From the NCBI RefSeq assembly GCF_000191065.1, contig NZ_GL872283.1, positions 62,001-126,000 of the forward strand: 64,000 bases of DNA, written 5' to 3'. Position 1 is the stretch's first letter. The number at the start of each line of letters is the position of its first letter. The notes below the pieces were generated by a model. That model was not told where the DNA came from, ran no database searches, and worked only from the letters and a program-made list of their open reading frames with translations. Both the position numbers and the translations under genes were made by a program. The stretch comes from Prevotella multiformis DSM 16608. Lineage in GTDB: Bacteria; Bacteroidota; Bacteroidia; Bacteroidales; Bacteroidaceae. Below are positions 2-58,946 of the stretch, in pieces.

Positions 2-775
2 TATAAGGTGAACAAGCATTTTGGACTGACAGGTGATTTCACCTATATCGTTCAGCATCCGAAGTTCGAGGCTTTCTCTCCGGCGACACTCCCTAACACT
101 GACAAGATTTCTGTTCCTCTCGGGCGTGTAGGTTTCTATTACAACAATTCATGGATGAGCCTCACCTCTCTCTTCTCTTACATCTCAAAGACCAACAACA
201 ACTCTACGCTTAATCTTCAGCACGGAAGCGAGATTATGGCTGCACCACTTACTTATGACATACAGACCATCGGCTGGACTACCGACGTGGTTGCCCATCC
301 GGTAAAGGGGCTTGACGTTCACTTCCTCTTCACTTATCAGCGTCCTACATACAAGAAGTATGAAACTTCGGTTACCTTCGCTGATGGATATGTCGGCAGT
401 ATCAATGCTACTGGCAACATCGTAGCTGAAATTCCAAGAGTGCTCATCGAGTTTGACCCAAGTTACATGGTTACGAAGGACATCAAGTTGTGGACCAGCT
501 TCCGTTATTTCAGCAAGACCTACGCCAATATCAATGATGCCTACTATTTCAACGGACACTGGGAAACATTCGGAGGTGTGAACTGGCAGGTTAACAAGCG
601 ACTGGCTTTAGGCTGTACGGTAGTTAACTTCCTCAACCAGACAGGTGCCAAGGGTAGTATTGCCGGTGCAGAACTTATCACCAAGGATGAAGCCAAGAAC
701 ATCAAGAACCAGCTGATGACAGGTAGCTATCTCCGTCCTTTCACAGTTGAGTTCACCGCTTCTCTCAAGTTCTAA
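2..775 (+). CDS. TonB-dependent outer-membrane receptor, C-terminal part
   Basis: The reading frame is already open at the left edge, so only the last 258 or so residues are seen; the N-terminal plug lies outside the window. The protein alternates aromatic and polar residues in the way of outer-membrane beta strands (for example FYYNNSWMSLTSLFSYIS and LWTSFRYFSKTY) and ends in LKF, the aromatic C-terminus expected for barrel insertion. TonB-dependent receptors import oligosaccharides across the outer membrane. The next genes are a GH32 fructanase, a sugar permease and a fructokinase, so a fructan oligosaccharide is the likely cargo; this is inferred from context. A GTG at 8 is in frame but is internal, not a start. 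Confidence 0.72.
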   Translation, partial: YKVNKHFGLTGDFTYIVQHPKFEAFSPATLPNTDKISVPLGRVGFYYNNSWMSLTSLFSYISKTNNNSTLNLQHGSEIMAAPLTYDIQTIGWTTDVVAHPVKGLDVHFLFTYQRPTYKKYETSVTFADGYVGSINATGNIVAEIPRVLIEFDPSYMVTKDIKLWTSFRYFSKTYANINDAYYFNGHWETFGGVNWQVNKRLALGCTVVNFLNQTGAKGSIAGAELITKDEAKNIKNQLMTGSYLRPFTVEFTASLKF

Positions 776-813: not shown

Positions 814-985
814 TTACCAGGTTTTGGTGACTTTGTTACCAAGCATTGGTAATACGTCTACAAAGCGTTTGTAATGCTTCTACAAAGCGTTTGTAATACG
901 TCTACAAAGCGTTTGTAATGCTTCTACAAAGCGTTTGTAATATGTGTACAAAGCGTTTGTAATATAGTTACCAGATGCTGGGAAT
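814..985. repeat. Array of eight 22-bp dyad repeats (array 1)
   Basis: Eight units start exactly 22 bp apart (814, 836, 858, 880, 902, 924, 946, 968). The five central ones carry TACAAA-GCG-TTTGTA, a perfect 6-bp inverted repeat with a 3-nt centre. The outer ones carry a different arm, for example TTACCAA-GCA-TTGGTAA at 836. Units 854-897 and 898-941 are identical, which indicates duplication of a 44-bp double unit. The array fills the gap between the receptor and the GH32 gene. It might bind a protein, end transcription, or be a slippage-prone repeat; no known family was recognised. Confidence 0.9.
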
Positions 986-1068: not shown

Positions 1069-1108
1069 GGCATGTTCCATAAGTTCCAAATTCTGACTGG
1101 AACATGCC
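1069..1108. promoter_or_regulatory. 11-bp inverted repeat just before the GH32 gene
   Basis: GGCATGTTCCA (1069-1079) is matched perfectly by TGGAACATGCC (1098-1108), with an 18-nt centre. The right arm ends 16 bp before the GH32 start codon. GTTCCA is repeated once more inside the centre (1083-1088). This could be an operator for a fructan-responsive regulator or a hairpin in the mRNA leader that affects translation. The symmetry is directly visible; the function is inferred. Confidence 0.6.
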
Positions 1109-1124
1109 ATAACTAAAAACAGCT

Positions 1125-3020
1125 ATGAACAGAAAGAATACTATCCTATGTGCTGCATTGACAGCCCTTACACTGTCAGCCACTGCACAGACAATGAAGA
1201 TTACACGTGCTGGTGATACCACCATCGTGAAGATTGAGAAGTCGCCACAGTATCTCATCCTTCCTGTTGAGGAGGAGAAGGACGAGGCGCAGGTGCTCCT
1301 CGACAATGGAAAGGTTACCGACACGTGGATGGATGTGCGGCTGGCACAAGGAAAAACCGATTATTACGTGCCTTTCAAGCTCAATAAAGGCAGGACTTCT
1401 GTCGTCAAGATTCTCAACCTGAAGGCGGATGCACTGGCACTTAGGAAGGGACAGATGAAACTTTCAAATGTCTGGGATGTGACCAATACCGATTTTTATC
1501 GCCCTTCTTACCACCACACACCTTCGTATGGATGGATGAATGACCCTAACGGTATGTTCTATAAGGATGGTGTCTATCACCTCTGTTATCAGTATAATCC
1601 CTACGGATCCAAGTGGGGTAACATGCACTGGGGGCATGCCATCAGCCGCGACCTTATCCATTGGAAAGAGGTTGAGCCGACAATTGCACGTGACCCGATG
1701 GGACATATCTTCTCGGGAAGTGCTGTTATCGATAAGGAGGGTACAGCGAAATACGGCAAGGATGCCATTGTTGCCCTTTATACATCAGCCAGTGACAAGA
1801 ACGGTCAGATACAGTGCATGGCATATAGTACCGATGGCGGTTACACCTTCCACAAGTATCCGGGGAATCCAGTCCTTACTCCTTTTGACGGGCTCAAGGA
1901 TTTCCGCGACCCGAAGGTGTTCTGGTATGCACCGCTGAAGAAGTGGTATATGATTGTTTCAGCCGACAAGGAGATGCGTTTCTATTCGTCACCTAACCTG
2001 CGGGATTGGACTTATATCAGTGCTTTCGGTCAGGGTTATGGCGCACAGCCTAACCAGTTTGAGTGCCCGGACTTCTTCCAGCTGCCTGTTGATGGAAACC
2101 CGAACAAGAAGAAATGGGTGATGATAGTCAACATAAATCCGGGCTGTCTCTTCGGCGGAAGTGCTACGGAATACTTCATCGGTGACTTCGATGGGAAGAA
2201 TTTTGTCTGCGATAGCAAGCCTTCTGTTGCCAAATTCCTCGATTATGGCAAGGATCATTACGCCACTGTAACCTTCTCTGGTGTCCAAGACCGTGTACTG
2301 GGTATTGCGTGGATGAGCAACTGGCAGTATGCCAACGTTACTCCTATCCGCCAGTATCGTGGTGCCAACACTCTCCCACGTGAGTTCAAACTCTTTACTG
2401 GCAAGGACGGACAGATTTATATGTCGTCCAATGTCGTACCCGAAGTTGCCGGACTGAGAAAGACTTTCAAACGTCTGCCTGACTTGGTCATCGCGCAGGG
2501 GAAGGATTCAAAAAATCTCTCCTCCAGCAAGGAGAATGCCTTTGAAATGGAGATGGACGTTGCTCCCGGTGATGCTGCCAAGACTGGTTTCATCCTCTAC
2601 AATGAAAAGGGTGAGAAGGTAAACATCTATTTTGATATGAAGGCTGGCAGGCTTGTCATGGACCGAACGGAGAGTGGTAGGACCAAATTCGGTGAGAAGG
2701 CTGAAGCCCATAAGATAGAAAAGGAATTCGACCTGCACGAACACCGTGAGATTAAGGAGCCGTTCCGCAAGTTGAATTCAGTCAATTATAAGAATGACTT
2801 TGCACTCGGCACATGGGCTCCGTTGAGTCTCTGCGACTCAAAGACCTATCATCTGGATGTCTTTGTTGACAAGTGTTCAATTGAAATCTTCGTCAATGGC
2901 GGTCGTATTGCAATGACTAATCTTGTGTTCCCGACGCAGCCATACACATCTGTCAAGTTCTACTCTGATGGCAACAAGGCCGCTTACAGGAATATAAAGG
3001 TGAGTGAGCTGAGGCTGTAA
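1125..3020 (+). CDS. GH32 fructanase (exo-inulinase/levanase type)
   Basis: Secreted glycoside hydrolase of family 32 that splits beta-fructosidic bonds in inulin, levan or sucrose-type substrates. A signal peptide covers about residues 1-21 (ends TLSATAQ). Residues 22 to about 115 form the extra N-terminal domain found in Bacteroidetes GH32 proteins (DUF4980-like). The catalytic five-bladed propeller follows with the three hallmark motifs: WMNDPNG with nucleophile Asp140, FRDP with Asp262, and ECPD with acid/base Glu313. A C-terminal beta sandwich runs from about 460 to 631. No lipobox is seen, so the product is probably periplasmic or exported. The receptor upstream and the permease and fructokinase downstream fit a fructan locus. 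Whether it prefers inulin or levan cannot be read from sequence. Confidence 0.95.
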   Translation: MNRKNTILCAALTALTLSATAQTMKITRAGDTTIVKIEKSPQYLILPVEEEKDEAQVLLDNGKVTDTWMDVRLAQGKTDYYVPFKLNKGRTSVVKILNLKADALALRKGQMKLSNVWDVTNTDFYRPSYHHTPSYGWMNDPNGMFYKDGVYHLCYQYNPYGSKWGNMHWGHAISRDLIHWKEVEPTIARDPMGHIFSGSAVIDKEGTAKYGKDAIVALYTSASDKNGQIQCMAYSTDGGYTFHKYPGNPVLTPFDGLKDFRDPKVFWYAPLKKWYMIVSADKEMRFYSSPNLRDWTYISAFGQGYGAQPNQFECPDFFQLPVDGNPNKKKWVMIVNINPGCLFGGSATEYFIGDFDGKNFVCDSKPSVAKFLDYGKDHYATVTFSGVQDRVLGIAWMSNWQYANVTPIRQYRGANTLPREFKLFTGKDGQIYMSSNVVPEVAGLRKTFKRLPDLVIAQGKDSKNLSSSKENAFEMEMDVAPGDAAKTGFILYNEKGEKVNIYFDMKAGRLVMDRTESGRTKFGEKAEAHKIEKEFDLHEHREIKEPFRKLNSVNYKNDFALGTWAPLSLCDSKTYHLDVFVDKCSIEIFVNGGRIAMTNLVFPTQPYTSVKFYSDGNKAAYRNIKVSELRL

Positions 3021-31774: not shown

Positions 31775-32049
31775 TCTTTTTCCTGTATTTAAAGGTCGTA
31801 TTGATTGTATGTCGCAACAGGCGTGTCGTACATTGCAATCAGTGTATTGTACGCTGCCCTAAGCGAAGATGAACGGACAGAAGAAGCCTCCCTGCCCCCT
31901 CCCATCAGTCTCCTTGAAGGGTCTGCATGGGAATGGAGTCCGGCTGTTCTCTGAGGTACTTCTCCCATTGAAGGTACAGACAACCGCCGAGACCGGCCTG
32001 CCTGTTTCTCCCCTGCTCACCAACACCCTGTAATTGCTGACAAATATAC

Positions 32050-32115
32050 AGAAAATAATTTAAATGTCAACAGAAAATAATTTAAATGTCAAAAGAAAAT
32101 AATTTAAATGTCAAA
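32050..32115. repeat. Three 22-bp A/T-rich repeats (array 7)
   Basis: Three tandem units at 32050, 32072 and 32094 differ by only one base (C or A at the last position). Each contains the palindrome ATTTAAAT followed by GTCAA. A partial fourth unit (AGAAT) follows. The array ends 54 bp before the DUF2339 gene and so lies in its promoter or leader. The gap 31775-32049 otherwise shows only a CGTACA/TGTACG dyad near 31827-31853. Confidence 0.85.
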
Positions 32116-32169
32116 AGAATTAGGAGAATATGAAGAAAAACACTACCTTTACGGTCAAAATGCTTTAAT

Positions 32170-34794: not shown

Positions 34795-34882
34795 CACCCC
34801 GCCATACCGCATAGGCCGACCGGCCGCCTGCTGTCCGCATCACGGCGACAGGGACTGCAGTCTCACCGCTTCCTGCCGATGT

Positions 34883-34992
34883 GCTGACACCCGACACTAT
34901 CCGCGTTGATACCCGACACCGAACGTGTTGAGGGCTGACACCGGCCGTGTTGAGGGCTGGCACCGGCCGTGTCGAAGACCCGCACGCAGACC
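34883..34992. repeat. Array of five 22-bp dyad repeats (array 2)
   Basis: Units start at 34883, 34905, 34927, 34949 and 34971. The central two differ by a single base and carry GACACCGGCCGTGTT or the variant GGCACCGGCCGTGTC. The outer ones are diverged. The array lies between the DUF2339 gene and the PEtn-transferase-like operon. A related short stretch is at 51978-52021. The remainder of the gap 34795-35333 shows no gene. Confidence 0.88.
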
Positions 34993-35295
34993 ATCCGTTG
35001 CCGGTAAGGGAGCGGATTGCCGTGAAAAAAAGCCGCACTGCCGAGAACTGACGTAACCCACACGGACGAAAGAAGCGCATGTTGCCCTAAAGCAAGGAGC
35101 AAACACGCTGTCTCATAATGCGGATCCGCCGGCAGGGATTCTCCGGCAGATCCGCAAAAGACATCAACGGAGACCTCCATCCACCGGGGAGAATGCCGCA
35201 CAGGCATACCGGTCCTGAATTCCATGAAGAAGGAGAATGGAACGGCCGACAGTGTTAAATTGTACTTTAAAATAGACTTACTCATAAAATAAAGT

Positions 35296-45037: not shown

Positions 45038-45126
45038 ATTCCCAACCGGCCGGGAATCCTGTTCCCGACGGCCGGTACTCCGATTCCCGACGGCTGGTAC
45101 TCCGATTCCCAACCGGTCGGGAAGAA
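45038..45126. repeat. Array of four 22-bp dyad repeats (array 3)
   Basis: Units start at 45038, 45061, 45083 and 45105 (first spacing 23, then 22). The inner two carry TTCCCGACGG followed by CCGGTACTCCG or CTGGTACTCCG. The outer ones carry ATTCCCAACCGG ending in GGGAA. It is the reverse complement of the family at 58837-58946. It lies upstream of dapB and downstream of the YitT-like gene. Confidence 0.9.
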
Positions 45127-58836: not shown

Positions 58837-58946
58837 TGCTCCCGGACGAATGGGTATCGGAGTACCGGATGCTGGGAACAGGAGTACCGGCCGTCGGGAA
58901 CAGGAGTACCGCCCGCTGGGAACAGGATTCCCAACCGGTCGGGAAT
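58837..58946. repeat. Array of five 22-bp dyad repeats (array 4)
   Basis: Units at 58837, 58859, 58881, 58903 and 58925. The central three read GGAGTACCG followed by GATGCTGGGAACA or close variants. The last unit carries ATTCCCAACCGGTCGGGAAT, a long dyad. It is the inverse orientation of the array at 45038-45126. It lies between convergent genes for the outer-membrane barrel and the sirtuin. Stretch 58734-58836 holds nothing else. Confidence 0.9.

What the first reader, a model, noticed from the sequence alone, without database searches (positions are those of the whole stretch)
814..985. Phased array of 22-bp dyads between receptor and fructanase
Eight dyads at an exact 22-bp spacing, about two DNA turns, so all would face the same side of the helix. 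The core TACAAA-GCG-TTTGTA is kept in five units. Outer units keep the spacing and the symmetry but use another arm sequence (TTACCAA/TTGGTAA). Conservation of symmetry and period rather than of sequence is unusual for a simple slippage repeat and would fit cooperative binding of a protein or a structure-forming element.
Basis: seen in the sequence. Interest (0 to 1): 0.68.

Follow-up and report, generated by a model that had tools for sequence, protein, structure and literature searches.

The report
Phased 22-bp half-site repeat arrays
A run of eight mirror-symmetric 22-letter DNA repeats before a fructan-digesting gene turns out to be one of many such runs between genes of Prevotella and Bacteroides relatives, mostly with the same two-turn spacing but with different spellings in different species.

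Summary
In detail: eight units at exactly 22 bp (814-984), far above chance. Corrections: the outer dyads are imperfect or single, and the five identical core units carry a 44-bp superperiod, so they are recent duplicates, not five observations. It is no one-off. All five strong tandem arrays of the window have period 22, as do 27 of 45 in 666 kb of this genome and 40 of 98 in relatives. The period marks the Prevotella/Bacteroides clade: 0 in 503 kb of other families of the order, 0 in 400 kb of other orders and classes of the phylum. Spellings differ between species and arrays, but in the families measured half-sites of alternating polarity recur once per helical turn (12+10 or 11+11 bp). This genome's main family (at least 72 places) keeps half-sites and spacing while outer spacers drift; its variant half-site is never compensated across the loop (0 of 19), and G-U and A-C exceptions are about equal. 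That argues for DNA read by a protein rather than an RNA hairpin. The window array has this geometry, with family-like half-sites at its edges only. Nearest known: P. gingivalis BrickBuilt and REP/BIME; no REP transposase found here. Binding protein and function are inferred.

The parts
814..984 (.). The array: eight 22-bp units, half-sites at 814/826, 836/848, 858/870 ... 968/980, i.e. alternating 12 and 10 bp apart
   Evidence: covariance model of family A hits 814-896 (E 1.4e-6) and 902-984 (E 2.1e-6)
814..857 (.). Left edge units (815, 837), half-sites TTACC/GGTGA and TTACC/GGTAA, family-A-like
   Evidence: sequence-only model R2: 812-856, E 0.007 for 64 kb; spelling
858..967 (.). Five identical-core units TACAAAGCGTTTGTA with 44-bp superperiod of spacers (ACGTC/GCTTC): recently amplified core
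   Evidence: TRF period 44, 93%; a DNA search with 800-1060 finds only this place in the own genome
968..986 (.). Right edge unit, half-sites TTACC/GGGAA (uncompensated dyad)
   Evidence: R2 match 937-986, E 0.03
2..775 (+).
1069..1108 (+). Separate hairpin (11-bp inverted repeat GGCATGTTCCA/TGGAACATGCC) just before the fructanase start; not part of the array
   Evidence: fold -18.8 kcal/mol, z -4.5
1125..3020 (+). GH32 fructanase (Glyco_hydro_32N, 32C, DUF4980); MFS transporter and PfkB kinase follow
45039..45123 (.). Family A array: cap TTCCCAACCGGCCGGGAA, two 17-bp dyads, second cap; period 22/23
58862..58945 (.). Family A array with the cap at its right end; its dyads are not significant by the permutation test (p 0.23)
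32022..32144 (.). Another period-22 array, A+T-rich unit AGAAAATAATTTAAATGTCAAA, ending near a gene start; not among the dyad-significant arrays
34877..34997 (.). Another period-22 array (unit GACACCGGCCGTGTTGAGGGCT), inside an ORF of the crude caller; not among the dyad-significant arrays

Best explanation
The array is one member of a class of mostly intergenic arrays typical of the Prevotella/Bacteroides clade. In the families measured, short half-sites of alternating polarity recur once per helical turn (two per 22-bp unit), so that all lie on one face of the DNA. The class is shown. Inferred: a homodimeric, cooperatively binding protein reads the half-sites and covers the array on one face, acting at DNA level near gene ends (local chromosome folding or insulation of neighbouring transcription units). 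The window copy derives from, or has converged on, the family that dominates this genome; its core then acquired a new half-site (CTACA/TGTAA) and was amplified by duplication in 44-bp steps.
For: Class: all five lag-scan arrays of the window have period 22; own genome 27 of 45 arrays, relatives 40 of 98. Clade limit: Prevotella group 24 in 549 kb, Bacteroides/Phocaeicola 10 in 465 kb, other Bacteroidales titles 1 in 418 kb; other families of the order 0 in 503 kb; ten genomes of other orders (4) and classes (6) of the phylum 0 in 400 kb. Rigid spacing without a 22-bp filter: GGGAA to TTCCC at 10 bp 39 times, median 1 over other distances (stretches not chosen for arrays); GGGAA-N5-TTCCC 94 times, against 0, 0, 1, 0, 0, 0 at N3, N4, N6, N7, N8, N12 in 763 kb (20 stretches of it chosen for holding arrays). 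Similar geometry with other half-site words: GTTTTG/CAAAAC 11+11 in G017, CTTTT/AAAAG 12+10 in L037, L044, L049; TTCCC and GTTTTG show no peak in the control set, CTTTT was not tested there. In columns outside the seed the half-site columns reach 0.93 (range 0.41-0.93, two registers mixed), outer spacers 0.34-0.44; loops are intermediate. Variant half-site GTACC uncompensated across the loop in 19 of 19 cases. No G-U excess. At least 72 places in this genome by my merging of the listed rows (113 of 1088 candidates scored). In the flanks of 34 arrays no 8-mer is shared by more than 5. Window array hit by a model built without it and, weakly, by a sequence-only model.
Against: No binding protein is identified. 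Several unrelated unit families share period 22 in one genome, which one sequence-specific protein does not explain. In G017 the main family has a conserved leader and tail like a mobile element. The window core (CTACA/TGTAA) departs from the family half-site, and window unit 837 is itself a compensated dyad (it forms no chain long enough for the count). With only 19 variants, independence alone predicts about one compensated pair, so one search shows no compensation but is not strong by itself. The array is not conserved at the orthologous site. Dyads are significant in only 33 of 67 period-22 arrays, and 18-bp arrays of relatives have dyads too (7 of 11). Density varies: G016 1 in 100 kb, G012 0 in 60 kb.
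Confidence: 0.5

Rival explanations
1. The arrays are non-autonomous mobile elements (MITE-like, as P. gingivalis BrickBuilt): a transposase spreads them and the phased dyads matter to the element, not the host.
For: In G017 18 places match one 200-bp query in 140 kb; most of them share leader, 22-bp palindromic units and tail, and by eye the ends look like imperfect inverted repeats (GTAAATATTTTTC and GAATTATCTTTAC). High copy number, species-specific sequence, intergenic position. BrickBuilt has leader, 23-nt repeats and tail with inverted ends, and segments with promoter activity (PMC4596501: abstract and sections 5 and 8 read, passages of others).
Against: Family A of this genome has no shared flanks and its copies have diverged most in the outer spacers, least in half-sites and spacing. 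No target-site duplication or empty site was established. Y1 transposase PF01797 has no match in G000, G003, G012 or G017; other transposase families were not searched.
Confidence: 0.25
2. The arrays act in RNA as tandem hairpins at gene ends (terminators or mRNA stabilisers, REP-like).
For: 19 of 24 family A arrays between co-directional genes lie nearer the upstream gene's 3' end (my count from the rows); for all period-22/23 arrays the bias is weaker: 11 of 17 own, 9 of 11 G017, 3 of 5 G003, 25 of 40 for periods 21-23. The array folds better than shuffles as RNA (z -5.1); one terminator-like hit at 813-831, shuffles 0.2.
Against: G-U 18 and A-C 18, 17 and 21; half-site variants uncompensated; covariation in family A no higher than shuffles; arrays also occur in divergent regions (5 of 34; background 38 of 198); any palindrome array folds well.
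Confidence: 0.1
3. Neutral minisatellite: replication slippage makes the arrays and quasi-palindrome correction makes the dyads; the common period is chance or shared descent.
For: The window core was clearly amplified in 44-bp steps; turnover between species is fast.
Against: Slippage should give varied periods, but 22 dominates in one clade and was not seen in samples of its neighbours; spacing is rigid while outer spacers diverge; palindrome correction would leave compensated variants, and none of 19 is.
Confidence: 0.15

Closest known systems
BrickBuilt (P. gingivalis minisatellite/MITE, PMC4596501)
   Same: Intergenic tandem repeats of about two helical turns (23 nt), 19 copies in one strain, species-specific sequence, same order (recalled); its authors mention stem-loops and dyad symmetry
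   Different: Unit 23 not 22; 11 of 19 BrickBuilt have both leader and tail, absent from this genome's family A; it was described as one element of one species, here the arrays form a clade-wide class with similar geometry and changing half-sites
REP / BIME with RAYT (PMC2817692 and PMC3733652, passages read)
   Same: Extragenic palindromes in high copy, alternating orientation, regular spacing, proposed protein-binding sites; CGTC-tagged repeats are reported in some Bacteroidetes
   Different: No general GTAG/CGTC tag, no RAYT found in this genome, units packed at exactly 22 bp, no G-U bias whereas G-T pairs are reported as frequent in GTAG stems
Plasmid iterons of about 22 bp (recalled, no call)
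   Same: Direct repeats about two helical turns apart, bound on one face
   Different: Dozens of sites on the two largest contigs, palindromic half-sites; no replication gene among the four neighbouring genes examined

Membership tests
BrickBuilt MITE | 23-nt tandem unit | tested here: not met
   22 bp exactly
BrickBuilt MITE | leader and tail with terminal inverted repeats around the repeats | tested here: not met
   family A: no 8-mer in the flanks shared by more than 5 of 34 arrays; something alike only in congener G017
BrickBuilt MITE | intergenic | tested here: met
   776-1124; family A 32 of 34 outside called genes
REP/BIME | GTAG or CGTC tag at one foot of the stem | tested here: not met
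   by reading: CGTC precedes only 2 of 8 window units (859, 903); none in the family A consensus; single other arrays (L003, L023) do carry CGTC before the stem
REP/BIME | associated RAYT (Y1) transposase | tested here: not met
   PF01797: 0 matches in G000; 27 of the 39 other genomes searched have one
REP/BIME | high-copy extragenic palindrome | tested here: met
   family A, at least 72 places; the window's own core sequence is single-copy
RNA hairpin / terminator array | pairing kept by compensation and G-U pairs on the transcribed strand | tested here: not met
Family A of this genome | half-sites KTMCC/GGKAM at 12 (13) and 10 bp | tested here: inconclusive
   geometry met throughout; spelling met at 5 of 6 edge half-sites, not in the core
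Known RNA families | Rfam match | tested here: not met
   0 matches at gathering threshold in 64 kb
Protein-bound phased array | a protein that binds it | not testable with these tools
   needs footprinting or pull-down

The most novel reading that the evidence does not exclude
Bacteroidaceae chromosomes carry a general addressing system: arrays with one half-site of alternating polarity per helical turn, whose geometry is fixed across the clade while the half-site word is rewritten in each species together with a fast-evolving DNA-binding protein family, comparable in logic to satellite or centromere turnover in eukaryotes.
Probability: 0.25. Interest if true: 0.82.

Novelty: new variant of a known kind. 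Interest (0 to 1): 0.6.

Why it matters
It turns a single odd repeat into a testable clade-wide class in common gut and oral bacteria: a DNA geometry (one half-site per turn, alternating polarity) conserved while the letters change. If protein-bound, it points to an unknown chromosome-organising or insulating protein. If mobile, it generalises BrickBuilt from one species to a clade and gives a system in which the transposase can be sought.

Tried and rejected
REP/RAYT: PF01797 absent from G000. RNA structure: wobble, covariation and compensation tests negative. Rfam: none. MITE with leader and tail for family A: no shared flanks. Conservation at the orthologous site: not found in 14 of 15 loci. 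The other 65 loci were not examined for gene order; in at least six of them (L034, L035, L037, L049, L068, L091) an array of period 21-23 lies within 600 bp upstream of the matched gene. L121 was first read as an upstream array; its gene lies on the other strand, so that 23-bp array is on the fructanase's 3' side (orientation).

Limits. The detector is crude (lag match 40 of 60). Rows dropped: N-run hits; arrays shorter than two periods after trimming; for the wobble counts, arrays inside ORFs, at contig ends, not between co-directional genes, with dyad p above 0.1 or paired fraction below 0.6. Gene context used simple ORF callers that disagree on some 'inside ORF' cases. Groups were assigned by me from record titles. 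The arrays of alignment A1 were chosen by me for having the cap.

Literature: nine searches of the open-access library brought up BrickBuilt and REP papers, and no listed title or abstract start names 22-bp arrays in Prevotella or Bacteroides; one search listed 20 of 58 papers, and subscription papers are not covered. PMC5771137: passages only.

Full report
What is there. Between an upstream gene (ends 775) and a GH32 fructanase (1125-3020; Pfam Glyco_hydro_32N/32C, DUF4980) lies an array of eight 22-bp units, 814-984. Lag-22 self-match reaches 56 of 60; the best of 300 dinucleotide shuffles at any period 8-60 is 35. Five core units are identical (TACAAAGCGTTTGTA). Their spacers alternate with a 44-bp period (TRF 93% against 87%), so the core grew by duplication of a two-unit block. 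Edge units keep the phase; one is a perfect dyad, two are imperfect.

Not a one-off. A lag scan of the whole window over periods 8-60 finds five arrays, all of period 22 (the first also at 44). Stretches of the same genome raise the sample to 666 kb: 27 of 45 arrays of period 12-60 have period 22, 11 of the 27 with dyads at p<=0.05 against column-permuted units (100 permutations, uncorrected). In 1.76 Mb of relatives it is 40 of 98, 22 of the 40 with dyads. For comparison, period 23: 3 of 5 with dyads; period 21: 4 of 13; all other periods: 14 of 58, half of these being 18-bp arrays of relatives (7 of 11). By group, period-22 arrays number 24 in 549 kb (Prevotella and relatives), 10 in 465 kb (Bacteroides, Phocaeicola) and 1 in 418 kb (other Bacteroidales titles). 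In 503 kb from other families of the order 0 of 12 arrays have period 22. In 400 kb from ten further genomes of the phylum (four of other orders of the class, six of other classes) there is no array of any period 10-60. Congener G017 has 17 in 140 kb, G003 11 in 180 kb, G016 1 in 100 kb, G012 none of 22 in 60 kb (one of 44). No other phylum was sampled.

Anatomy of the class. In this genome the main family (A) has units TTCCC-N7-GGGAA with 5-bp spacers and often an 18-bp palindromic cap (TTCCCAACCGGTTGGGAA type). The 14 sequences of alignment A1 were chosen for the cap; in the chains, which accept a 12- or 13-bp step without asking for the cap, 31 of 34 contain at least one 13-bp (cap) spacing. 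A covariance model from A1 finds 121 matches in the own genome, 72 distinct places by my merging of the listed rows (lower bound: 113 of 1088 candidates scored, list cut), and weak matches in 7 of 39 relatives. In 59 other genomes over the phylum it finds none (stricter filters). Word distances need no 22-bp assumption: TTCCC to GGGAA 12 or 13 bp (23 and 19 times, median 1), GGGAA to TTCCC 10 bp (39, median 1), TTCCC to TTCCC 22 or 23 (29 and 15, median 2). GGGAA-N5-TTCCC occurs 94 times in 763 kb, six other spacings once in all (20 of the stretches were fetched because they hold arrays). In columns outside that seed half-site columns lie between 0.41 and 0.93 (the CC/GG core mostly 0.8-0.93; two registers are mixed), the loops beside the seed 0.34-0.76, outer spacers 0.34-0.44. 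Spacers take 53 spellings in 145 cases (43 are CAGGA or its complement), loops 37 in 81. In other lineages the half-site is another word and the sum stays 22: GTTTTG/CAAAAC at 11+11 in G017, CTTTT/AAAAG at 12+10 in L037, L044 and L049. In the control set GTTTTG and TTCCC show no peak; CTTTT was not tested there. So in these three cases a half-site of alternating polarity stands about every helical turn.

DNA or RNA. Arrays between co-directional genes were oriented by transcription. Exceptions to Watson-Crick pairing were G-U 18, A-C 18 and other 53 in 26 arrays, and 17, 21 and 35 in 22 arrays of three genomes; the two sets overlap. An RNA hairpin would favour G-U. In family A the variant half-site GTACC faces a normal one in 19 of 121 units and a complementary variant in none (independence predicts about one). 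Covariation does not exceed shuffles. Window unit 837 is a compensated dyad, outside that count. The array does fold well as RNA (z -5.1), but any palindrome array would. Arrays occur in divergent regions too (5 of 34 family A; 38 of 198 in background). Family A arrays lie nearer the 3' end of the upstream gene in 19 of 24 tandem cases (my count); for all period-22/23 arrays the figures are 11 of 17, 9 of 11 and 3 of 5 in three genomes, for the first survey 25 of 40. This fits function near gene ends or mere avoidance of promoters.

The window array in this frame. Its half-sites stand at exactly 12 and 10 bp. Edge half-sites are TTACC/GGTGA, TTACC/GGTAA, TTACC/GGGAA, five of six within the family consensus KTMCC/GGKAM; the core has CTACA or GTACA with TGTAA. 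The family A covariance model hits it at E 1.4e-6 and 2.1e-6, partly because the model rewards dyads. The sequence-only model gives weak hits there (0.007, 0.022, 0.03, 0.43). It is not among the listed whole-genome matches, where candidates and list were cut. A DNA search with the array finds only this copy. Kinship with family A is therefore likely at the edges and unproven for the core.

Orthologous site. Of 15 related loci examined, 14 have a gene of about 765-790 aa next to the fructanase, and none of these has a 22-bp array between. L023 has a 9/18-bp repeat there (by reading). L020 has another upstream gene and a 22-bp dyad array about 400 bp before the fructanase. In G017, whose fructanase is 73% identical, a 23-bp dyad array stands on the 3' side of the gene. 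Position turns over quickly; geometry less so.

Mobile or bound. In G017 18 places match a 200-bp query in 140 kb; most share leader, units with exchanged or inverted loops, and tail, and look like a mobile element. Family A shows no shared flanks. Y1 transposase has no match in G000, G003, G012 and G017, so REP/RAYT mobility is unlikely to be the cause there. I hold protein binding as most likely (0.5), because half-sites and spacing are kept while the rest diverges, and mobility as the main rival (0.25); both may be true of different families.

Known or new. BrickBuilt of P. gingivalis (PMC4596501; abstract and sections 5 and 8 read, passages of others) is the nearest known thing: 23-nt intergenic tandem repeats, 19 places, 11 with both leader and tail. 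REP/BIME (PMC2817692, PMC3733652; passages only) share palindromes and alternation but not, as a rule, the tag, nor the transposase or the 22-bp packing. Nine literature searches (named in Tried and rejected) listed no description of the 22-bp class. I rate it a new variant of a known kind.

Noticed in passing
1069-1108: Strong 11-bp inverted repeat (GGCATGTTCCA/TGGAACATGCC, z -4.5 as RNA) just before the fructanase start; by eye relatives L024 and L043 also show a hairpin-like stretch in this intergenic region.
   Followed up: partly
L199-L205 (G017): A dispersed element of about 180 bp with leader, palindromic 22-bp units and tail: 18 places in 140 kb match; imperfect inverted ends and partly conserved longer flanks.
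   Followed up: partly
L091 19070-19146; L049; L199-L205: Loops between the arms occur in both orientations at the same phase (AAGCGGTGCTT and AAGCACCGCTT; GGCCGTC and GACGGCC), as if the centre of a dyad could be inverted or exchanged.
   Followed up: partly
L011 5341-5469 and 9558-9682 (contig C3): Two period-22 arrays with nearly the same unit in opposite orientation on the small 41-kb contig.
   Followed up: no
L003 14073-14192; L023 1309-1420: Period-22 arrays whose units carry CGTC before the stem; possibly tandem CGTC-tagged repeats, which PMC3733652 reports in some Bacteroidetes.
   Followed up: no
L272 15447-17573 (G031): Large 52-bp tandem repeats in a relative of the order in whose sampled stretches no 22-bp array was seen.
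   Followed up: no
L206 and L208 (G012): Two 41-bp arrays and no 22-bp one in this congener's sampled 60 kb; the two units look different by eye.
   Followed up: no
32022-32144: A+T-rich period-22 array ending about 35 bp before an ORF of about 874 aa; may shape its 5' leader.
   Followed up: no
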